A stretch of DNA of 10,532 bases from JAUXIQ01 sp030620925 [NCBI: Nitrospinota bacterium] (GTDB lineage: Bacteria > JAUXIQ01): the NCBI GenBank assembly GCA_030620925.1, contig JAUXIQ010000035.1:1-10532 (forward strand), written 5' to 3'. The position numbers and the translations under genes are program-made. Shown here in pieces: positions 59 through 10,532 of this stretch; positions within the stretch are counted from its first letter, which is position 1; each line of letters starts with the position of its first letter. The notes under the pieces are model-generated. The model did not search any database and was not told the DNA's origin. It saw only the letters and a list, made by a program, of their open reading frames with translations.

Positions 59-1585
59 TTATCGAGATCTTTTTTTTCTATTTTTATTAACCATTAAGGC
101 TATTTCTTTCATGGGATTCTTGAGAATATTTGCGCTTATTTGCACCTCTTTTATATCGATAATTTCCAGCAGGCGGTCGCAGCCGTTGAGCCTGTCCCAA
201 CAATAGCGTACGATATCCAGCCCATCGAGATGCGTTTTTTCGGCCAGGAAGTTTATTGCGCCGTGAGAAAAGCTGAGCTTTATGCCGGAGGTGTTAAAAA
301 ACTGGCCGATGAAATCTTCGAGAGGTTTTATGACCAGTACCCTTTTCAGAGTCTTTTGAGGGTTATTAACAGTATCTTTTGATATTGAGAGCTCGTGGAT
401 GTTTTTACCCGGAAGTTCGTATTTGAAATCCGCCAATGCCTTTTCACAAACGGTCATGAGGCCTCGGGCGCCTGTCTTCTCTTCGTACGCCAGTTGAGCG
501 ATGCGTTTCAGGGCTTCATCGGTGAAATTTAAATCGACGTCTATCAGCGAGAAATCGTGTACGTGCTGTCTTGTGATTGCGCAATGGGAATGCTGGAGGA
601 TTGAGTAGAAGTCTTCCACATCGAGGTCCTCGAGGATGACCCTGACAGGCAGCCGACCCACCAGCTCCTGGATGAGGCCGTATTCCACAAAATCTTCTGT
701 GGTTACATGGGGGAGGTAGTCGGTTTTTTCGCTCTCCGAGTGTACTTCACCCTTGAAACCGACCCGCTTGCTGTGCATGCGTTTTTTTATGATATCAGGC
801 AGCCCCGGGAAGGCCCCTCCTACTATGAACAGTATGTTTCTGGTGTTTATGGTGGGACGTCTGCCTTTTCCGCCGGCCATGATACCCTGCATCATGGAGA
901 CGGGATCGCTGGTGCTCACCAATTCGACTTCGGTTTCTTCCATGGGTTTAAGGAGCTCGGTCTGGACTCCTGTGCCGGTAATATCACGGCCCATAATGGT
1001 GCTGTCTGTAGCGATTTTGTCGATCTCATCGACAAATATCATGCCGCACTCGGCCAGTTTAATGTTGCCTTCCGCTTCTCGCACCAAGTCCCGGACGAGG
1101 TTTTCCACGTCTTCACCCACGTAACCTGTCTTGCTGAGTTTGGTAGCGTCCCCTAGTACCAGGGGAACACCTAATATCTTGGCCAGGCGCTTGAGGAGGA
1201 GGGTCTTGCCGACACCCGTGTTACCCACCATAATGATGTTGTTCTTCTGATAGTTCTCCTGGCGTATACCGGTCTTGAGCTCCTTTTCGATGTGTCTGTA
1301 GTGGTAAAAAGCTGCATTCGCAAGATACTTCTTGGCGGCATCCTGTTTGATGACATATTTGTCCAGTTCGGCCTTTATATCCCTGGGGGCGAGGTTAAAG
1401 TTGAGCTCGATCTTTTCTTTCGCGGGTTCTTTCTCCACCCCTATTTTGCCCAGTGGCACCTCAGGGCCCGTAACCATTCTGGCGCTGAGCTCCCGTAGGC
1501 CGTATTTTTCCTGCAATTTCTTGGCGAAATCCTGAATTTCCTTATATATCTCATCCTGGGCATTTTTGTCTTTGTCGTCAGACAT
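59..1585 (-). CDS. ClpX-like AAA+ unfoldase lacking the N-terminal zinc domain
   Basis: A 508-residue ATP-dependent unfoldase of the ClpX family, expected to unfold proteins and feed them to ClpP in the cytoplasm. Walker A is GNTGVGKT (121-128). The pore loop is GYVG (154-157), followed by the ClpX-like EDVENLVRDL. Walker B is MIFVDEID (182-189). The arginine-finger box GRLPV is at 310-314 and the sensor-2 box GARGL at 372-376. A VGF tripeptide (275-277) lies where ClpX carries its IGF loop for ClpP docking, so ClpP binding is plausible. Two things differ from classical ClpX: the first 60 residues are charged and helical with no CxxC pairs, so the C4 zinc domain is absent, and about 90 residues follow the usual C-terminus, ending in a basic KNRKKRSR tail. 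The start ATG has only a weak purine-rich stretch (AAAGAAAG) upstream. No clear terminator lies in the 58 bases left of the stop. HslU is less likely because the whole central region follows ClpX. Confidence 0.9.
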   Translation of the reverse strand: MSDDKDKNAQDEIYKEIQDFAKKLQEKYGLRELSARMVTGPEVPLGKIGVEKEPAKEKIELNFNLAPRDIKAELDKYVIKQDAAKKYLANAAFYHYRHIEKELKTGIRQENYQKNNIIMVGNTGVGKTLLLKRLAKILGVPLVLGDATKLSKTGYVGEDVENLVRDLVREAEGNIKLAECGMIFVDEIDKIATDSTIMGRDITGTGVQTELLKPMEETEVELVSTSDPVSMMQGIMAGGKGRRPTINTRNILFIVGGAFPGLPDIIKKRMHSKRVGFKGEVHSESEKTDYLPHVTTEDFVEYGLIQELVGRLPVRVILEDLDVEDFYSILQHSHCAITRQHVHDFSLIDVDLNFTDEALKRIAQLAYEEKTGARGLMTVCEKALADFKYELPGKNIHELSISKDTVNNPQKTLKRVLVIKPLEDFIGQFFNTSGIKLSFSHGAINFLAEKTHLDGLDIVRYCWDRLNGCDRLLEIIDIKEVQISANILKNPMKEIALMVNKNRKKRSR

Positions 1586-1803: not shown

Positions 1804-2256
1804 CTAGTCTTCAAGGTAGAGGTAGGTCTCTTCTTTGAGAGAGGAGAGGACGACGTTAGTGAGCGTCCTCGCCACACCTGGTATAGCCCTGATTTTCTTG
1901 GAAATTATGTTTTCAAGCGTGGCGGTGTTCCTGGTTTTTACCTTGAGGAGGTAGGAGTAGTCGCCGGTGACGTGATGACACTCCAGCACGTCGTCAAGCT
2001 TGGTTACATCCACCACAAAAGCCTCCTCAAAGCTGGGGTTACTTACGTATACGTTAACGAAAGCTGTTAGCTCCTTGCCGATTTTCTTGTCATTAAGGAT
2101 CGCCGCGAAACGCTTTACGATGCCTTCGCTGCACAGTTTTTTAACTCTCTCACTGACCGAAGGAGCGGAAAGCCCCACAGTCTTTGCTATATTGGAATGG
2201 GCTTCTCTACCGTTTTCCTGGAGCAAAGTCAAAATTTTAATATCGACGAAATCCAT
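1804..2256 (-). CDS. Lrp/AsnC-family transcriptional regulator
   Basis: A 150-residue DNA-binding regulator of the feast/famine (Lrp/AsnC) family, which assembles as dimers to octamers and usually senses an amino acid. The N-terminal winged helix-turn-helix spans about residues 4-50, with the recognition region SAPSVSERVKKL (30-41). The C-terminal RAM effector domain runs about 64-140 and includes GDYSYLLKVK (98-107) and PGVARTLTNVVLSS (126-139), both typical of the family. Length matches the family norm. GGGGAGG seven bases before the ATG supports the start. It is transcribed divergently from the dehydrogenase / aminotransferase / aldehyde dehydrogenase genes, the classic arrangement for an Lrp protein controlling a neighbouring amino-acid pathway and itself. 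The mycobacterial LrpA beside lysine 6-aminotransferase is a similar pairing. The ligand is not visible from sequence; lysine or a branched or aromatic amino acid would fit. Confidence 0.93.
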   Translation of the reverse strand: MDFVDIKILTLLQENGREAHSNIAKTVGLSAPSVSERVKKLCSEGIVKRFAAILNDKKIGKELTAFVNVYVSNPSFEEAFVVDVTKLDDVLECHHVTGDYSYLLKVKTRNTATLENIISKKIRAIPGVARTLTNVVLSSLKEETYLYLED

Positions 2257-2311
2257 GAAGGTGCCTCCCCCGTATTAAATAATTGAAATAAAAAACACCC
2301 TCTCATATTTT

Positions 2312-2340
2312 ATAGTAAGGAGAAAAGGATATTTTGTCAA
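2312..2340 (-). promoter_or_regulatory. Sigma-70 promoter of lrp
   Basis: On the minus strand TTGACA (2335-2340), a 17-base spacer and TACTAT (2312-2317). This is a near-consensus site placed about 55 bases upstream of the lrp start codon, giving a short leader. Confidence 0.7.
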
Positions 2341-2396
2341 ATAATACTTGTATTGCAGGTGAATTTGATTAAAGATTTAAAAATTTTCCAGCTCAA

Positions 2397-2408
2397 ATTG
2401 CATGCAAT
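2397..2408. promoter_or_regulatory. Candidate Lrp-type operator palindrome
   Basis: ATTGCATGCAAT is a perfect 12-base palindrome lying between the two divergent promoters, 57 bases from the lrp -35 box and 73 from the dehydrogenase -35 box. A matching half-site ATTGCA starts 45 bases away at 2352. Lrp proteins bind AT-rich imperfect palindromes in phased sets, so autoregulation from here is plausible but inferred. Confidence 0.4.
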
Positions 2409-2480
2409 ATCTCCTCTTTAACTTGCCAGAAGGCCGAAAAAAAATTGTAACTTTATCCGCCGAGCTAACATAAGAATAAT

Positions 2481-2509
2481 TTGACAACACACCCATACAA
2501 CCTTATATT
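2481..2509 (+). promoter_or_regulatory. Sigma-70 promoter of the dehydrogenase-led gene cluster
   Basis: TTGACA (2481-2486), a 17-base spacer and TATATT (2504-2509). A transcript would begin near 2516 and carry a leader of about 155 bases before the first start codon. Confidence 0.7.
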
Positions 2510-2533
2510 ATAAAGGGTATACAGAATATATAC

Positions 2534-2607
2534 TACTATTCTAAGTATGAAATAGTATTATGGTTTATAAAGTAAACCTGTTTGTTTGAGGCTGTCGCCT
2601 CTTTTTT
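2534..2607 (+). promoter_or_regulatory. Structured leader with candidate attenuator
   Basis: Three inverted repeats follow one another in the leader: TACTATT/AATAGTA (2534-2540, 2551-2557), GGTTTA/TAAACC (2562-2567, 2573-2578), and GAGGC/GCCTC (2588-2592, 2597-2601) with a TGTC loop and then TTTTTT (2602-2607). The last has the form of an intrinsic terminator, although its stem is only five pairs. It sits between promoter and first gene, so it would act as an attenuator if functional. A nine-codon frame ATG...TGA (2560-2589, peptide MVYKVNLFV) ends exactly at the terminator stem, but no clear ribosome site precedes it. Confidence 0.45.
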
Positions 2608-2670
2608 CTTGTGTTCGCTAGGGGCAAAGGTGGTTTTAAAAGTTATCTTTAAAAGTAAAGGAGACCCGAC

Positions 2671-3813
2671 ATGCTACGGACCAAAGAAGTGAAAATAAAA
2701 GGATACGAAAGTGTAACGTTCCTGGAAGATAAAAAGATCGGGATGAGAGGATACGTGGCGATTCATGATACTTCGTTGGGTCCGGCGGTGGGTGGATGTC
2801 GAATGCTGAAATATGATAATCAGAACCTGGCCTTAAAAGATGCCCTCAGACTTTCCCGCGGAATGACTTATAAAAGCGCTGCAGTGGGGCTCAATTATGG
2901 CGGGGGTAAAACGGTTATCATAGCCAATGACGTCGGTTCCAGGCGCGAGATGGTTTTTGAGAGGCTCGGAAGTTTCATTAATGATTTGGGCGGAACGTAC
3001 ATCACCGGGGTAGATGCGGGCACCAACCTGTATGATATGAAATTTCTTAAAAGGCACACCGAATATGTCGCTGGAGTCCCGTCTCCAGGGCATGAGATCG
3101 GCGATCCTTCCATGGCCACGGCCTACGGGGTTTACATGGGTATGAAGGCCTGCATAAAAGAGAAGCTGGGACGCAGGGATTTCCAGGACCTTAGGGTGGC
3201 CATACAGGGAGCGGGTAAGGTGGGTGGCTACCTCATAGAAAGGCTCACCAAAGAAGGGAGTAAAATTATCCTGGCGGAGCCGCGAGAGGAGATCGCCCAA
3301 CAGATGGCCCAAGAATTCGGCGTGGATTTGGTCAAACCGAATCAAATATACAACGTCGAAGCGGATATATTTGCCCCGTGTGCGCTGGGAGGAATGCTGA
3401 ACAGCAGAACCATACCCAGGCTGAAAAGCCCTATAGTAGCAGGAGCGGCGAACAACCAGCTGTTGACAGACAAGGCCGGGGAACTTCTCCATACGCGAAA
3501 TATACTCTACGCTCCCGACTATGTGATTAATGCGGGCGGCCTCATCTGCGTGGTTCTGGATATGGAAGGTTCCAACATGGCAAACATCCTACTGAAGACT
3601 TCTCGCATATACGACACCCTTCTGGATGTCTTCAGAACCTCAAAGAGCGAAGACCTTCCTCCCTATCTGGTAGCCGACAGAATGGCGGAACGGAAAATTA
3701 TCAAAGCGAATACGGATAAAGAGATGGAAAAAAAGAAGCCGGAAGACACTCGCACGTCTTACGGTACGGATCAAGAGCAGACTAAGACTACCGCAGCAAG
3801 CATGCATGCTTGA
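2671..3813 (+). CDS. Glu/Leu/Phe/Val dehydrogenase-family amino acid dehydrogenase
   Basis: A 380-residue NAD-dependent amino acid dehydrogenase that oxidatively deaminates an L-amino acid to the 2-oxo acid plus ammonia and NADH. It follows leucine dehydrogenase closely, even in numbering: substrate lysine K68 (MTYK), catalytic K80 (GGGKT), D115 (TGVDAGT), N261-N262 (GAANNQL) and APDYVINAGG (281-290). The Rossmann loop is GAGKVG (180-185), with acidic E203 where leucine dehydrogenases have Asp, which favours NAD. Pocket residues G113 and L291 match the phenylalanine-dehydrogenase pattern rather than Ala/Val of leucine dehydrogenase, and V40 replaces Leu. The last 35 residues are a hydrophilic, low-complexity tail. 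AAAGGAG seven bases before the ATG fixes the start. It leads a co-directional group with the aminotransferase (57-base gap) and aldehyde dehydrogenase. It could regenerate the 2-oxo acid acceptor for the aminotransferase while making NADH. Exact substrate is unresolved. Confidence 0.9.
   Translation: MLRTKEVKIKGYESVTFLEDKKIGMRGYVAIHDTSLGPAVGGCRMLKYDNQNLALKDALRLSRGMTYKSAAVGLNYGGGKTVIIANDVGSRREMVFERLGSFINDLGGTYITGVDAGTNLYDMKFLKRHTEYVAGVPSPGHEIGDPSMATAYGVYMGMKACIKEKLGRRDFQDLRVAIQGAGKVGGYLIERLTKEGSKIILAEPREEIAQQMAQEFGVDLVKPNQIYNVEADIFAPCALGGMLNSRTIPRLKSPIVAGAANNQLLTDKAGELLHTRNILYAPDYVINAGGLICVVLDMEGSNMANILLKTSRIYDTLLDVFRTSKSEDLPPYLVADRMAERKIIKANTDKEMEKKKPEDTRTSYGTDQEQTKTTAASMHA
3797..3812. repeat. 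16-base perfect palindrome over the dehydrogenase stop codon
   Basis: CAAGCATGCATGCTTG reads the same on both strands and covers the last codons and the first two bases of the stop. AAGCATGC recurs at 3952-3959 inside the next gene. It could be a protein-binding site or a coincidence of the Ser-Met-His-Ala codons. Confidence 0.6.
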
Positions 3814-3819
3814 ACGTAA

Positions 3820-3846
3820 TTCCCTCATCCAAAGGGAGATTCTTTT
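3820..3846 (+). terminator. Weak hairpin between dehydrogenase and aminotransferase genes
   Basis: TCCCT (3821-3825) pairs with AGGGA (3833-3837) around a seven-base loop, one G-T pair can extend it, and a broken T-rich tract (TTCTTTT) follows. The stem is short, so it may reduce but probably does not stop transcription into the aminotransferase gene. Confidence 0.3.
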
Positions 3847-3870
3847 AGGTTAGAGGTTTCAAGGCTTCTG

Positions 3871-5346
3871 ATGAACAGGAAAAAAGCAGCGATAGATGTA
3901 AAAACTGAGATACCCGGGCCCAATTCGCAGAATTGGGTCGAAGCATATATGAAGCATGCTGCTCCCTCAACATACGCCTACCCCTTCGTGTGGGACGTTA
4001 CCTCCTGGGCGCAGGGACCTTTCTGCACTGATGCTGACGGAAACGTGTTCATCGATTTTTACGGACACGTGGGCGCTGCACCGCTGGGATACAACAACCC
4101 GAAGATACTCTCTGACTGCGGTGTGCCTTTCGACCCCGTAAAAACGGCTGAACACGATACCTTCCTCGCTGTGGGCAAGGACCCCTTTGGTTCTCGCAAC
4201 GTCCGTTTCAAAAAGCCCCGGGCATCCGACTTCAGGACTGCCACAGATCTTCAGAACCTTCTGGTAAAACTCACCTCCGGGTTCCAGATGGATATGGTTT
4301 TCCTGGTGAATTCGGGGGCCGAAGCGGTCTCCAACGCAATTAAGATAAGCATTCATAGGAAGTTCAGAGAGGTAAAGGCCAGGATAGGGGATGAGCTTTT
4401 CGGGGAAATGTGCAGACAACTGGGTATAGCGTCCAGCGGGCTATTCACAGACCTTTACGCAGACTATCCTTTGTTTGGTCTGGCAGCCGCGGGCGCTTTT
4501 CATGGCCGAACCATGGACGTGCTCTCCCTCACCAACAGCAAGAAAGCACAAAAAGAGGGTTTTCCCACCTTAGGCTGGGTAAAGCATGTGGATGTCGTGG
4601 ATTCGGTCTTCGATCCGGCAGAGCTGATGTGTGAGGCCGACCTTAAGACTCTCATCTTGAACAAGCGCCTGGGCAGGGTTGTGCATGAACAGGGAAGGGT
4701 GCCCGGAGAGTTGCTGGCTTATATAATAATCGAGCCCATCCAAGGTGAAGGGGGTTATAAGATACCCCGCACTGAGAACGTCAAGGTGCTCGCCGATGTA
4801 GCACAGCGTCATAACTCACTGTTGATCTCGGATGAGGTTCAGACCGGCATAGGAAGGACCGGCCACTGGTGGGGCATAGAGCACCACGGCGTCGTGCCCG
4901 ACGTGATAGCTGTCGCTAAGGGTCTTCGTGTGGGTGCGGTGATCAGCCGGGGCAACAATTTTCCCGGGGAGTCGGGGGTAATCTCCAGTACATGGTGCGG
5001 CGGCGAGATTTCCATTGCCGTGGGCTACAAGACGTTGCAAATTATAGAAGAGGAGGGCTTGGTGCAGAACGCCGCGCAATCCGGTGACTACTTGATGGAC
5101 GAGCTGCGGGGATTAAGGCGAGAGTATTCCTTTATAGAAGAAGTACGCGGTCGCGGGCTGATGGTGGGTATTGAGTTGTCGGACGCTGATAAAAGGGACA
5201 GGCTTGTGGAGATCTGTTTTGAGAAGGGGCTCCTTGTATTGGGTTGCGGCAAAAAGACCATCAGGATGCTGCCGCCACTTGACGTCAGGCCCAGGGAGAT
5301 GGATATGGCGGTGGCTGTATTCGAACGGGCTCTATCCGAGCTTTGA
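3871..5346 (+). CDS. Class III aminotransferase, lysine 6-aminotransferase-like
   Basis: A 491-residue PLP enzyme of fold type I, class III, which moves a terminal amino group to a 2-oxo acid and leaves an aldehyde. Visible landmarks are NSGAEAVSNAIK (147-158), AFHGRT (209-214), EPIQGEGG (288-295), DEVQTG (321-326), the PLP lysine K350 in AVAKG, and SSTWCGG (372-378). Several stretches recall mycobacterial lysine epsilon-aminotransferase more than GABA or ornithine aminotransferases: HGRxxxxLSLTNSK, the STW in place of the usual TFGGNP-type motif, and IRMLPPL (464-470) with R465. It is longer than Lat (about 450 residues). Roughly 20 extra residues lie between NAIK and AFHGR (about 165-200). 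The ATG has only a weak purine stretch upstream, and an in-frame TAG at 3850 limits extension. With the adjoining aldehyde dehydrogenase and Lrp regulator, lysine to 2-aminoadipate semialdehyde is the leading guess. Other omega-amino acids are possible substrates. Confidence 0.85.
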   Translation: MNRKKAAIDVKTEIPGPNSQNWVEAYMKHAAPSTYAYPFVWDVTSWAQGPFCTDADGNVFIDFYGHVGAAPLGYNNPKILSDCGVPFDPVKTAEHDTFLAVGKDPFGSRNVRFKKPRASDFRTATDLQNLLVKLTSGFQMDMVFLVNSGAEAVSNAIKISIHRKFREVKARIGDELFGEMCRQLGIASSGLFTDLYADYPLFGLAAAGAFHGRTMDVLSLTNSKKAQKEGFPTLGWVKHVDVVDSVFDPAELMCEADLKTLILNKRLGRVVHEQGRVPGELLAYIIIEPIQGEGGYKIPRTENVKVLADVAQRHNSLLISDEVQTGIGRTGHWWGIEHHGVVPDVIAVAKGLRVGAVISRGNNFPGESGVISSTWCGGEISIAVGYKTLQIIEEEGLVQNAAQSGDYLMDELRGLRREYSFIEEVRGRGLMVGIELSDADKRDRLVEICFEKGLLVLGCGKKTIRMLPPLDVRPREMDMAVAVFERALSEL

Positions 5347-5388
5347 GCATGTCAATAAATTTTAAATATCGTATCTCAAAAGGAGTCT

Positions 5389-5415
5389 AAGCCTCGCCTA
5401 TGCGGGGCTTTTTTT
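5389..5415 (+). terminator. Intrinsic terminator between aminotransferase and aldehyde dehydrogenase
   Basis: AGCCTCGC (5390-5397) pairs over eight positions (one G-T) with GCGGGGCT (5402-5409) around a CTAT loop, then a run of T to 5415. It is the strongest plus-strand terminator in the window. It either ends the aminotransferase transcript or attenuates transcription into the aldehyde dehydrogenase gene, whose own promoter I could not place. Confidence 0.75.
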
Positions 5416-5453
5416 CATCGCAATTCCCTCTTATCAGAGAAGGAAAGGCAGTT

Positions 5454-6965
5454 ATGGCTGAACACTCAAAACCAATAGAAGGAAAGAACTACATAGAAGG
5501 AGAGTGGGTGAGCTCCTCTTCAGATGATATTTTCGAGAGCAGAAACCCGGCTGATACCGACCAGGTATTGGGAGTTTTCCCTCGTTCGACGGAGCAAGAT
5601 GCAAAAAGAGCTGTTGAAGCCGCCGTCAAAGCTTTCAAGAACTGGAAGAGTCTCTCCCGCATTAAGCGGGGGGAGCTGTTCGACAATTTCGCCCAGATTG
5701 TGAAGAGTGAACAGGAAGAGCTCTCCCGGCTTGTTACCATGGAGTGCGGGAAGGGAATCAATGAGGGCCGGGCCGATGTGGTGGAAGGTATACACATGGT
5801 GCAGTATGTGTTCGGGAGCAGCCGGATGCCTTCGGGACAGGTGGTGGCATCAGAGATTGCGGAGAAGGAATCCTACATGAAGCGTCATCCTAAAGGTCAG
5901 GTGGCGGCCATTTCCCCCTGGAACTTCCCATTTGCAATACCATTGTGGCTGTTGGGCCCATCCCTCCTTGAAGGCAACACCGCGGTATTCAAACCTTCGG
6001 AGGACACGCCTCTCATAGGCCACAAATTGGCTGAATATTTTCATCGGGCGGGTTTCCCGCCCGGAGTAGTAAACGTCGTCCACGGATACGGGGAGGAGGC
6101 GGGCGCACCGCTGGCGGCTCATCCGGAAATAGACGTGGTCCTCTTTACCGGTTCCTACGAGGTGGGTTCCCGGATAAAGCAGATTTGCTCCAACTACTAT
6201 AACAAGATGGCGGTCTGCGAAATGGGCGGCAAGAACGCTCTCCTCATCCTGGAGGATGCAGACATGGACATCGCCGTCAGTTCAGCGGTGCTCAGCGCTT
6301 TTAAGACCAGCGGACAGCGGTGTGTCAGCGCCGGGCGCTTTATAGTTCATGAGAAGATGGCGGACGAGTTTACCGAGAAGTTTCTTGAAATGACCAACCG
6401 CATCGTTATCGGCAACCCCCTGAGGGAAGACGTTTTCATGGGCCCCATCATAAACGAGCAAGGCTTGAAGAAGGTGGAATACCATAACGAGATGGCCGTA
6501 AAAGAGGGGGCGGAAGTTCTCCTGAAAGGAGAGAGGCTTGGCGGAAAAGAGTACGATCGCGGCTTCTTCATTAACCCCTTCGTTTACAAGATGAAACATA
6601 ATCATGAGAGTTTCGTCCTGAGAGAAGAAGCCTTCGGACCTCACGTGGCCATAATCCCCGTGGGGAGCGTAGAGGAAGCCATAGAGGTTTACAACGATAC
6701 TGAGTATGGATTGTCGATGGCGGTCATTACCGAGGACTACAGGAAGGCCCGCCTGGTTGAAGAAAACTGCGAATATGGCCTGGGCTATGTAAACCTGCCC
6801 AGCATAGGCGCGGAGGTGCATCTGCCCTTCGGAGGCGTTAAGAGGAGTGGAACCGGGATGCCGTCGGCGGCCACCCTCATCGACGCTGTCACCCACCGGG
6901 TGGCATGGACCATAAATCACGGCACCGAGATTAAGATGGCGCAAGGGTTAGGTGTTGAGATATAG
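5454..6965 (+). CDS. NAD(P)-dependent aldehyde dehydrogenase
   Basis: A 503-residue cytosolic aldehyde dehydrogenase that oxidises an aldehyde to its carboxylate. Numbering from the chosen start: PWNFP with N157, K180 in KPSE, FTGS (231-234) of the cofactor fold, general base E256 in CEMGGK, catalytic C290 in SGQRC, EEAFGP (391-396) and the late PFGGVKRSG (458-466). All key residues are present and the length is normal. The ATG at 5454 is preferred because AAGGAAAGG lies just upstream. An ATG at 5400 is in the same frame but lies in the loop of the terminator hairpin and would add 18 residues with no family resemblance. Following an aminotransferase that makes a semialdehyde, it plausibly takes 2-aminoadipate semialdehyde (or its cyclic form) to 2-aminoadipate, as mycobacterial Pcd does, although its PWNFP motif is not the ALDH7-type variant. 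Succinate- or glutarate-semialdehyde are alternatives. Gap to the aminotransferase stop is 107 bases. Confidence 0.9.
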   Translation: MAEHSKPIEGKNYIEGEWVSSSSDDIFESRNPADTDQVLGVFPRSTEQDAKRAVEAAVKAFKNWKSLSRIKRGELFDNFAQIVKSEQEELSRLVTMECGKGINEGRADVVEGIHMVQYVFGSSRMPSGQVVASEIAEKESYMKRHPKGQVAAISPWNFPFAIPLWLLGPSLLEGNTAVFKPSEDTPLIGHKLAEYFHRAGFPPGVVNVVHGYGEEAGAPLAAHPEIDVVLFTGSYEVGSRIKQICSNYYNKMAVCEMGGKNALLILEDADMDIAVSSAVLSAFKTSGQRCVSAGRFIVHEKMADEFTEKFLEMTNRIVIGNPLREDVFMGPIINEQGLKKVEYHNEMAVKEGAEVLLKGERLGGKEYDRGFFINPFVYKMKHNHESFVLREEAFGPHVAIIPVGSVEEAIEVYNDTEYGLSMAVITEDYRKARLVEENCEYGLGYVNLPSIGAEVHLPFGGVKRSGTGMPSAATLIDAVTHRVAWTINHGTEIKMAQGLGVEI

Positions 6966-7954: not shown

Positions 7955-7983
7955 TTGAATTAACCGTCGGCCTATGCTATAAA
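7955..7983 (+). promoter_or_regulatory. Extended -10 promoter of the SDR gene
   Basis: TTGAAT (7955-7960), a 17-base spacer and TATAAA (7978-7983), with TG one base before the -10 box (7975-7976), the extended -10 element. The start codon is about 55 bases beyond the expected transcript start. Confidence 0.65.
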
Positions 7984-8046
7984 AAGCCAACCCGAGATAG
8001 GTTTAGAATAAAATATATCACACGAAAAGAGAGGGAGCATTCAGCG

Positions 8047-8892: not shown

Positions 8893-9567
8893 CTAATCCA
8901 GGCCTATCCAGCTGCAGACTGTATCCAGTTCCTCCCTGTATGTATCAGCTTTTGAGACGGGATTATCGTAGTCAGGATAGCCTACGCCTATGCCCACTAT
9001 GAGGCGTTTCTCGGGCGGTACCTGAAGAAATTCTTTAACGTCGAGCTCGTAGTTAAGCAGCATACCTATGCTGCAGGTAGCCAACCCCTCTTCCTGGCAG
9101 GCCAGGTGAAGGGCCATGCTGGCCGCACCCACATCGAGCAGGTAGCGGGTGTTGAGTCCCTTGTCTATGAAGAATAGAATGGCCGCGGGCGCCCCGTAGA
9201 ACCGGTAGCTTCCTTCCATCATTTCCTGATCGCTCAAGTTTACTTTGTATTTTTCCATTTCAGCGGTCATGAATTGACGGTGTTTGCCCATCCGTTCGGT
9301 ATAGGCCGGAGGGATGCTTTTGAAGGGCTGTTTGTTGGGTTCATCCGTGGAGAACTTCTTTTTCTCTCTGCTGAATTCCACCAGCATCTCGCTCAACTGC
9401 TGTCTCTTTTCTCCTGCAACAACCACCAGGTCCCAGGGCTGGACGTTTGAGCTGGATGGCGCTCTGATAGCCGCGTTGAGCACTTTCTTAATCAGATCAC
9501 TGGAAACAGGGTCCGGCTTGAATGCCCTTACAGTCTTGCGCTTAGCTATAGCATCATAGACGTTCAT
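8893..9567 (-). CDS. Nitroreductase-family FMN oxidoreductase
   Basis: A 224-residue protein of the nitroreductase/FMN oxidoreductase superfamily, normally homodimers with FMN at the interface that reduce nitro compounds, quinones or enones with NAD(P)H. The N-terminal RKTVRAFKPDPV (10-21) supplies the usual FMN-phosphate arginines. APSSSNVQPWDLVVV (36-50) is the family's APSxxNxQPW signature. GAASMALHLACQEEGLATCSIG (147-168) is the conserved helix and loop. IVGIGVGYPDYDNP (190-203) is the C-terminal strand and GYP motif. A somewhat longer charged insertion (about 66-118) sits in the usual variable region. No iron-sulfur cluster motif is fused. AAAGGAGG four bases before the ATG strongly supports the start. 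It stands alone on the minus strand. The physiological substrate is unknown. Confidence 0.92.
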   Translation of the reverse strand: MNVYDAIAKRKTVRAFKPDPVSSDLIKKVLNAAIRAPSSSNVQPWDLVVVAGEKRQQLSEMLVEFSREKKKFSTDEPNKQPFKSIPPAYTERMGKHRQFMTAEMEKYKVNLSDQEMMEGSYRFYGAPAAILFFIDKGLNTRYLLDVGAASMALHLACQEEGLATCSIGMLLNYELDVKEFLQVPPEKRLIVGIGVGYPDYDNPVSKADTYREELDTVCSWIGLD

Positions 9568-9745
9568 CCTTCCTCCTTTGCTATTGGTATAGATTGACGA
9601 TCATAAGCCATTAGAAGGTTCTCCGCCCCTTTCGGTTCCCCGTTGCAAGTATATTATAGATGTCTCTGCTATGAAAGGATATGACGGGTTTCAGCTTGAA
9701 AATCGTTTTTTTTTGAATAAAAGTGAAAAAAATTTCATTAAGGGG

Positions 9746-9773
9746 TTGATTTTTTCTGTTTTATTATTATATT
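9746..9773 (+). promoter_or_regulatory. Candidate promoter of the PxxKW gene
   Basis: TTGATT (9746-9751), 16-base spacer, TATATT (9768-9773) in a very AT-rich tract. It would give a leader of roughly 190 bases that includes all three hairpins. The AT richness makes chance matches easy. Confidence 0.4.
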
Positions 9774-9847
9774 GTTACTTTTAAATGCTCTGGGCGGGAA
9801 TCGATAATCAAATTTCTCAATCGGCCTCCTAGACGCCTTTCTATATG

Positions 9848-9935
9848 GGTTCAGTGGGACTCTCCTTCTGAACCGCTATCAAATGTTCCGGTTTGATAAT
9901 TGGGAAAAAAGTATGCGGTTCCGCGTTTGGAACCG
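9848..9935 (+). ncRNA. Three-hairpin structured leader of the PxxKW gene (candidate cis-regulatory RNA)
   Basis: Three perfect stems follow in 88 bases. Hairpin 1 is GGTTCAG/CTGAACC (9848-9854, 9868-9874), continued after a T-T mismatch by GGGA/TCCT (9856-9859, 9863-9866) closing a three-base loop. Hairpin 2 is TATCAAA/TTTGATA (9877-9883, 9892-9898). Hairpin 3 is CGGTTCC/GGAACCG (9916-9922, 9929-9935). Hairpins 1 and 3 share GGTTC/GAACC arms, and GTTCC in loop 2 (9885-9889) can pair with GGAAC in the 3' arm of hairpin 3, so alternative folds are possible. No T-run follows, so it is not a terminator. I do not recognise a known RNA family. Confidence 0.45.
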
Positions 9936-9972
9936 TCCACAGGGAAAAATTGTCTGAAAAAAAGGAGAAGAA

Positions 9973-10257
9973 ATGCTCTGCACCACGGTTAAAAAGGATA
10001 TCGACTGCAACTTCATGACCTCTCAGGGTTGTACCTTCAACGGCGGGAGCTGTCATACCATAGTGGAAAAGTGTAATGGGTGCGATCACGTGGTTTCCTT
10101 TCAGGGGAATCAGTATTGCAGGGCCTACGCCGACCCCTCTTCCAAATGGGTACTCGGCAGGTGTAACTTTGCCACTAACGTGATTAAGGATGGGTTGAAG
10201 GAAAGCAAGCGGTTGAACCCCCTTAAGGAGTCCAAGAGGAAAAGCAGGGGAAAATAG
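9973..10257 (+). CDS. PxxKW-type cysteine-rich small protein
   Basis: A 94-residue protein with eight cysteines (3, 12, 20, 27, 34, 37, 49, 64) and the motif P55-S-S-K-W59 (DPSSKW) that names the PxxKW cysteine-rich family, which I recall from Desulfobacterota genomes. Its function is not known to me. Cysteine pairs such as C34-x2-C37 would suit metal binding or disulfides, but no histidine-rich or known cluster motif is complete. There is no signal peptide or membrane segment, so it is probably cytoplasmic. The C-terminus from about 72 is basic and contains LKESKR twice (75-80, 84-89), encoded by different synonymous codons. AAAGGAG five bases before the ATG confirms the start. It appears to be a single-gene unit behind a long structured leader, which suggests post-transcriptional control. 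Confidence 0.85.
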   Translation: MLCTTVKKDIDCNFMTSQGCTFNGGSCHTIVEKCNGCDHVVSFQGNQYCRAYADPSSKWVLGRCNFATNVIKDGLKESKRLNPLKESKRKSRGK

Positions 10258-10301
10258 CGGGAAAATTCAAGCTCGCCATCCCACGGTAAAAAGTATACAG
10301 C

Positions 10302-10347
10302 GGGGCAGCCCTGGTCCTCCCCCCCTTCGTAACTTCAAGGCTGCCCC
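10302..10347. terminator. Long hairpin between converging genes at the right edge
   Basis: GGGGCAGCC (10302-10310) and GGCTGCCCC (10339-10347) pair perfectly over nine bases around a 28-base C-rich loop. Neither side has a strong T tract right after the stem. The minus side reaches CTTTTT about nine bases on. It probably ends the minus-strand gene at the right edge, the plus-strand PxxKW gene, or both. Confidence 0.5.
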
Positions 10348-10532
10348 ATACCTTCCTTATCAGAAGATATTTCATCTATGATAATCGTGATCCGATTATC
10401 GCTCCATCGCTGAAATATCAGGCGCACCGGCGCATCATCTTTCTTGCGGTGGGCGAGGCAGCCCTCTACGAGGATGTTCTGCCTCGTATCCTGAAAGACC
10501 ACCTCTAAATCCTGGTTTTTAAACTCATAAAG
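10335..10532 (-). CDS. Hypothetical protein, C-terminal fragment (runs off the right edge)
   Basis: An open frame of 65 codons enters from the right edge on the minus strand and stops at TGA (10335-10337). No start is inside the window. The visible part contains LEVVFQDTRQNILVEGCL and PVRLIFQRWSDNRITIIID, alternating hydrophobic and charged residues that suggest beta strands of a small soluble domain. It ends in a polar SSDKEGMGQP. I do not recognise it. The uninterrupted frame, strand-like pattern and hairpin at its end support a real gene. The last codons form one arm of the hairpin at 10302-10347. Confidence 0.6.
   Translation of the reverse strand, partial: LYEFKNQDLEVVFQDTRQNILVEGCLAHRKKDDAPVRLIFQRWSDNRITIIIDEISSDKEGMGQP

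What the first reader, a model, noticed from the sequence alone, without database searches (positions are those of the whole stretch)
9848..9935. Three-hairpin leader with interchangeable arms upstream of the PxxKW gene
Three perfect seven-pair stems in 88 bases are much more structure than expected by chance in an AT-rich intergenic region. Hairpins 1 and 3 use the same GGTTC/GAACC core and loop 2 can invade hairpin 3, so the RNA could switch between folds. No terminator follows, which points to control of translation, stability, or a separate small RNA. I know no described RNA element attached to PxxKW genes.
Basis: partly seen in the sequence, partly recalled or inferred. Interest (0 to 1): 0.65.

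Follow-up and report, generated by a model that had tools for sequence, protein, structure and literature searches.

The report
Folded RNA leader before PxxKW gene
The RNA in front of an uncharacterised cysteine-rich bacterial gene looks able to fold into a compact, possibly switchable structure, and many relatives of the gene carry a predicted transcription stop signal between promoter and gene, which suggests the gene is controlled by its own leader RNA.

Summary
The three perfect 7-bp stems are real (9848-9874, 9877-9898, 9916-9935) and unusual: three in 90 nt occur in 1 of 2000 shuffles and 1 of 70 sampled own-genome intergenic regions. Of 151 PxxKW leaders only the window has three. No relative of the element was found, so covariation is untestable. 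The predicted unit is larger: a 9-bp helix (9813-9821/9899-9907) closes a junction holding hairpins 1 and 2 (z -4.10), and hairpin 3 competes with a helix to the 5' end. The proposed exchange between hairpins 1 and 3 is energetically poor. Comparable folding scores occur in 12 of 61 own intergenic regions. The stronger result is family-wide: of 62 PxxKW leaders with a near-consensus promoter 60-200 nt upstream, 33 have a terminator-like hairpin between promoter and gene, against 1 of 26 controls and about 3 of 62 after shuffling. One lineage version gave one hit per genome, at PxxKW (candidates scored were capped). PxxKW is probably leader-controlled; the window's version lacks the U-run, so its mechanism is inferred.

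The parts
9746..9773 (+). best sigma-70-like promoter (TTGATT-16-TATATT, 9 of 12), predicted start near 9780
   Evidence: 4 promoter-like sites found in 9560-10400 against 1.5 +/- 1.2 in shuffles, so weak; a second 9-of-12 site lies at 9780-9808
9789..9806 (+). 5' strand of long-range helix P0, competes with hairpin 3
   Evidence: hairpin 3 pairing probability 0.00 when the RNA starts at 9780-9790, 0.95-0.99 when it starts at 9800 or later (RNA ending at 9990)
9813..9821 (+). 5' strand of closing helix P1 (9 pairs, one G-U)
   Evidence: domain 9811-9909 z -4.10, 0 of 200 shuffles
9823..9837 (+). small hairpin P2 in the junction
9848..9874 (+). hairpin 1 (7 pairs, with 4 further inner pairs GGGA/UCCU)
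   Evidence: -15.8 kcal/mol with inner pairs, pairing probability above 0.97
9877..9898 (+). hairpin 2 (7 pairs), directly next to the 3' strand of P1
   Evidence: probability about 0.45 in 9840-9945, 0.90-1.00 in 9780-9990
9899..9907 (+). 3' strand of closing helix P1
9912..9931 (+). 3' strand of helix P0, overlapping hairpin 3
   Evidence: enforcing hairpin 3 costs 5.3 kcal/mol (-59.9 against -65.2)
9916..9935 (+). hairpin 3, 57-38 nt before the AUG, a place where some relatives also have a leader hairpin; no U-run follows
9964..9967 (+). Shine-Dalgarno GGAG
   Evidence: sequence
9973..10257 (+). PxxKW / DUF6811 gene, 94 aa, 8 cysteines invariant among 24 aligned members

Best explanation
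The stems belong to the 5' untranslated leader of the PxxKW mRNA and act in cis on how much PxxKW is made. In about half of the relatives with a long leader the form is that of transcription attenuation: a near-consensus promoter, an intrinsic-terminator-like hairpin starting a median 24 nt from the predicted start, then readthrough into the gene. The window carries a divergent form. A junction domain (P1, P2, HP1, HP2; 9813-9907) is followed by hairpin 3, which competes with helix P0 to the leader's 5' end. Because hairpin 3 has no U-run, I infer that here the choice acts by RNA stability or translation, or that the terminator was lost. Shown: the sequence features, the family-wide enrichment, and one hit per genome for one lineage version. 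Predicted only: the folds, promoters and terminators. Inferred: transcription, regulation, signal.
For: Window: z -4.10 for 9811-9909; -3.58 on the sense strand against -1.78 on the antisense; the nearest upstream gene is divergent (nitroreductase 8893-9567, - strand), so the stems are unlikely to end an upstream + transcript. Family: 33 of 62 leaders with a promoter of at least 9.7/12 whose -10 ends at 60-200 nt have a terminator-like hairpin between promoter and start, against 1 of 26 control starts (Fisher 7e-6; with promoters of at least 10: 26 of 48 against 1 of 16, p 9e-4) and a mean of 2.9, maximum 8, in 40 shuffled sets. Best local hairpin z: median -1.95 (n=62) against -0.12 (n=314 controls), p 1e-9. 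16 of 54 groups (15 genome families and one named contig) have such a leader. R1 gave one hit in each of 14 of 17 genomes: 13 at PxxKW (its own training loci), the 14th at a contig edge in a genome whose PxxKW was not found. R2 set: two-sided changes in 7 cells, reached by 0 of 500 shuffles. A second promoter after the terminator in 1 of 33 argues for readthrough.
Against: No relative of the window's own element, so no covariation test. The window has no U-run and a weak promoter (9/12). 12 of 61 own-genome intergenic regions contain a 100-nt window with z below -4, so the folding score is not exceptional; the window's single best hairpin is only z -1.3 to -1.5. In RNA 9787-9938 the lowest-energy fold has P0 but the centroid has hairpin 3. 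With a promoter at 20-59 nt, 50 of 151 leaders qualify and none has a terminator; with promoters of at least 10.7 the long-leader contrast is 12 of 25 against 0 of 4, p 0.12. Of the six leaders nearest by protein or kinship (L003, L004, L006, L007, L008, L037) only three have a perfect 7-bp stem at -130 to -25. In the f66 terminator helix no pair changes on both sides.
Confidence: 0.45

Rival explanations
1. Ordinary intergenic structure: the stems have no regulatory role and the leader is simply one of several structured intergenic regions in this genome.
For: 12 of 61 own-genome intergenic regions reach z below -4 in some 100-nt window; these stems were found in no other leader.
Against: Three stems in 90 nt is rare (1 of 2000 shuffles, 1 of 70 regions); long PxxKW leaders are structured above control.
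Confidence: 0.3
2. A separate small RNA: promoter and hairpins make a short RNA that acts in trans, and PxxKW is merely next to it.
For: In relatives the predicted promoter-to-terminator unit is short, about 50-70 nt in the two modelled groups (my sum).
Against: Only 1 of 33 has a second promoter of at least 9/12 between terminator and gene; R1 gave one hit per genome, at PxxKW, although the called upstream ORFs differ; the window has no + strand terminator-like site.
Confidence: 0.1
3. The inverted repeats are DNA operator sites for a regulator of the divergent nitroreductase and PxxKW genes.
For: The gene pair is divergent; dyads 1 and 3 share GGTTC/GAACC half-sites.
Against: The three half-sites differ, the spacers are 13, 8 and 6, and the sites lie downstream of the best promoter-like site; folding bias for the sense strand. 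A search of the own genome found no second copy of the leader, but it would miss short sites.
Confidence: 0.08
4. Hairpin 3 is a terminator for leftward transcripts antisense to PxxKW.
For: The only terminator-like site in 9560-10400 is hairpin 3 on the - strand.
Against: 5 nt before the T-run; 0.9 such sites expected in shuffles; a GGGGCAGCC/GGCTGCCCC stem lies nearer the - strand ORF (sequence).
Confidence: 0.05

Closest known systems
Transcription attenuators with premature intrinsic terminators (class surveyed in PMC2965389; passages read)
   Same: Many relatives have promoter, leader hairpin with U-run, then the gene; the arrangement recurs while the sequence differs between lineages, as that survey describes for syntenic attenuators.
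   Different: The window has no U-run. In relatives the stem starts a median 24 nt (3-104) from the predicted start, and a leader ORF with Shine-Dalgarno is seen in only 3 of 33. I read passages of that paper only and cannot say whether its tables hold PxxKW.
Riboswitches (Rfam classes)
   Same: A predicted junction domain followed by a hairpin that competes with another pairing.
   Different: No Rfam match at gathering score in the window or in 19 relative loci, no aptamer sequence shared with relatives, no ligand evidence.

Membership tests
PxxKW / DUF6811 protein (PF20657, NF038144) | profile score above curated cut-off | tested here: met
   113.9 against 35.8 and 107.4 against 40 bits
Intrinsic-terminator attenuator (window) | GC hairpin followed by a U-run on the gene strand between promoter and start | tested here: not met
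   no + strand terminator-like site in 9560-10400
Intrinsic-terminator attenuator (window) | promoter upstream of the leader structure | tested here: inconclusive
   TTGATT-16-TATATT, 9 of 12
Intrinsic-terminator attenuator (window) | mutually exclusive alternative fold | tested here: inconclusive
   hairpin 3 against P0, predicted only and dependent on the RNA's ends; HP1/HP3 arm exchange unfavourable
Intrinsic-terminator attenuator (PxxKW relatives) | terminator-like hairpin between promoter and gene above background | tested here: met
   33 of 62 against 1 of 26 control starts and a mean of 2.9 of 62 shuffled
Intrinsic-terminator attenuator (PxxKW relatives) | regulated readthrough | not testable with these tools
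   needs term-seq or reporter assays
Known riboswitch or other Rfam family | covariance model match at gathering score | tested here: not met
   0 matches in the window and in 19 relative loci

The most novel reading that the evidence does not exclude
PxxKW genes form an undescribed, widely attenuated gene family. A fast-evolving, promoter-proximal leader RNA senses the state that the eight-cysteine PxxKW protein handles, perhaps the protein itself or a metal. The window carries a terminator-free version in which a junction domain sets whether hairpin 3 or helix P0 forms.
Probability: 0.2. Interest if true: 0.7.

Novelty: new member of a known kind. Interest (0 to 1): 0.45.

Why it matters
PxxKW (DUF6811) was found in 272 of 395 sampled genomes of one large phylum, and the paper library searched holds no paper that names it. 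Near-consensus promoters combined with leader terminators point to strong but conditional demand for the protein (inference). They offer a handle on its function: whatever relieves the terminator hints at what the protein is for. Two lineage models (R1, R2) make the idea testable.

Tried and rejected
Direct covariation of the window's stems: no homologue. In the own genome nothing but itself came below E 0.8. Model R3 gave 0 of 395 genomes at E 0.001 (stricter filters, and the tool notes that an empty answer without a positive control shows nothing) and, in 89 sources (the window and 88 of the loci held), nothing below E 2 outside the window. R1 and R2 do not match the leader: R2's best in the window is E 0.095 at 9665-9712, upstream of the promoter-like site, R1's is E 0.3 at 7981-8016.

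HP1-loop/Shine-Dalgarno pairing (UCUCCUU 9861-9867 with AAGGAGA): real, but 289 of 3000 shuffles have such a 7-mer, not used. CsrA-type GGA sites: recalled, not tested. Leader peptide: a candidate in 3 of 33 relatives. Structure of PxxKW: mean pLDDT 49, not usable, no fold search made. Solved structures: one match, E 0.17, a deoxycytidylate deaminase. One search placed the exchange helix one base off; one search has the corrected energy. Relatives of the window's genome: the 59 genomes are all 'same domain' only.

Rows dropped: L005 (duplicate of L001) and L002 (start unclear) were left out; of 158 leaders 7 with an identical last 120 nt were dropped, leaving 151. They come from genomes high in a capped, score-ordered list, not from all 272. 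Fifteen starts were set by alignment position rather than by motif. Control genes were called by a crude longest-ORF rule, so some starts are wrong, and many controls may be inside operons; with 100 nt or more free upstream the control is 1 terminator in 17 promoters of 314 starts. Leaders with promoters at 20-59 and 60-200 nt can overlap. Family labels were typed.

Full report
Observation. The three stems exist as described. Three non-overlapping perfect 7-bp stems within 90 nt occur in 1 of 2000 dinucleotide shuffles of 9641-9972, in 1 of 70 own-genome intergenic regions from 20 of 445 contigs, in 1 of 639 control gene starts and, of 151 PxxKW leaders, only in the window. The gene behind them is a PxxKW/DUF6811 gene. 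Rfam gives nothing at gathering score, and no tRNA is found.

The larger fold. The stems are only part of what the sense strand can form. Region 9811-9909 folds with z -4.10 (0 of 200 shuffles): a 9-bp helix P1 (9813-9821/9899-9907) closes a junction with a small hairpin, hairpin 1 and hairpin 2. In RNA from about 9780 to 9990, hairpin 3 is replaced by helix P0 (9789-9806/9912-9931; -65.2 against -59.9 kcal/mol with hairpin 3 enforced); with starts at 9800 or later hairpin 3 forms. In RNA 9787-9938 the lowest-energy fold has P0 but the centroid has hairpin 3, so the balance depends on the ends. The sense strand scores better than the antisense (z -3.58 and -1.78). Against this, 12 of 61 intergenic regions in the sampled contigs also reach z below -4 somewhere, and the window's single best hairpin has only z -1.3 to -1.5, so the folding score alone proves little.

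Relatives. The 59 genomes offered as relatives of the window's genome share only the domain with it. I collected 151 distinct leaders and 639 control gene starts from 40 stretches of mostly 20 kb. With a promoter of at least 9.7/12 whose -10 ends 20-59 nt before the start, 50 of 151 leaders qualify and none has a terminator. With 60-200 nt, 62 qualify and 33 have a terminator-like hairpin between promoter and start. In controls the second class holds 26 of 639 starts, 1 with a terminator (Fisher 7e-6); with promoters of at least 10 the contrast is 26 of 48 against 1 of 16 (p 9e-4), and with at least 10.7 it is 12 of 25 against 0 of 4 (p 0.12). Shuffled leaders give a mean of 2.9 of 62, maximum 8 in 40 sets. 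The most stable local hairpin in long PxxKW leaders has median z -1.95 against -0.12 in 314 controls. A perfect 7-bp stem at -130 to -25 is present in 49 of 151 leaders and in 50 of 274 controls. Counted by group, 16 of 54 have at least one leader with a terminator. Hairpin 3 of the window, 57-38 nt before the AUG, lies about where L004, L063, L110, L112 and L138 have a hairpin, but the position varies widely: among the 33, the stem ends 31-118 nt before the start.

Two lineage versions. In family f66, 13 leaders share GAGUUACC/GGUARCUC-type stems plus a U-run, most of them preceded by a hairpin that shares the GAG of the terminator arm (alignment A1). The terminator helix is 97.1% paired but has no two-sided change. 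The preceding hairpin has two pairs with two-sided changes, which 29 of 500 shuffles reach. Model R1 gave one hit in each of 14 of 17 genomes; 13 are the loci it was built from and the last lies at a contig edge in a genome whose PxxKW was not found. Only 150 first-look candidates per genome were scored, so other copies are not strictly excluded. In f93 and f133, nine leaders share CGGAUUG/CAAUCCG or close variants plus a U-run; 7 cells change on both sides, reached by 0 of 500 shuffles. R2's best match in 9 of 11 genomes is the PxxKW leader, again the loci it was built from, with weaker hits elsewhere in some genomes. Eight of nine f93 leaders have a co-directional ORF upstream, so there the terminator might also serve that gene. 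In f66 the called upstream ORFs vary: nine co-directional, three divergent, one with none.

Reading. Of 33 terminator-bearing leaders only 1 has a second promoter after the terminator and 3 have a candidate leader ORF, so readthrough attenuation without a leader peptide is the simplest account for them. For the window I infer the same role, control of PxxKW by its leader, through a different last step, because the U-run is missing. None of this is shown by experiment.

Literature. PxxKW, DUF6811, PF20657 and NF038144 occur in no paper of the library searched. The survey of premature terminators PMC2965389 was read in passages only; it describes syntenic attenuators that need not share sequence or sensing system, which resembles the pattern here. 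Other papers were seen in search listings only.

Noticed in passing
59-1585 (-): A 508-aa ClpX-like AAA+ protein that scores below two ClpX cut-offs (352.2 against 359, and 320.1 against 370.75), perhaps a second, divergent ClpX.
   Followed up: no
1804-6965: Lrp/AsnC-type regulator next to an amino-acid dehydrogenase, a class III aminotransferase and an aldehyde dehydrogenase (matches below the curated cut-offs): looks like an amino-acid degradation cluster.
   Followed up: no
L191:6604-6753 (own genome contig C20): The one other sampled intergenic region with three 7-bp stems contains GGGCAACC/GGTTGCCC-type palindromes, possibly a dispersed repeat.
   Followed up: no
A4 (24 PxxKW proteins): Eight invariant cysteines and a conserved basic C-terminal motif NPLKASKR (N, L, K, K, R invariant).
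   Followed up: partly
L007 and L008, about 96-61 nt before PxxKW: Two named deltaproteobacterial MAG contigs (CP070735.1, CP070692.1) share a GCCGGGG/CCCCGG hairpin with a T-rich tail before PxxKW.
   Followed up: partly
L219 and L221, between terminator and start codon: A second GC hairpin (CCCCG/CGGGG or CCCGG/CCGGG) sits just before the Shine-Dalgarno (read).
   Followed up: no
L264 (G427 C17:5661-5716, - strand): In G427 the PxxKW leader has no R2 hairpin, but an R2-like hit lies about 1 kb upstream on the same strand and contig.
   Followed up: no
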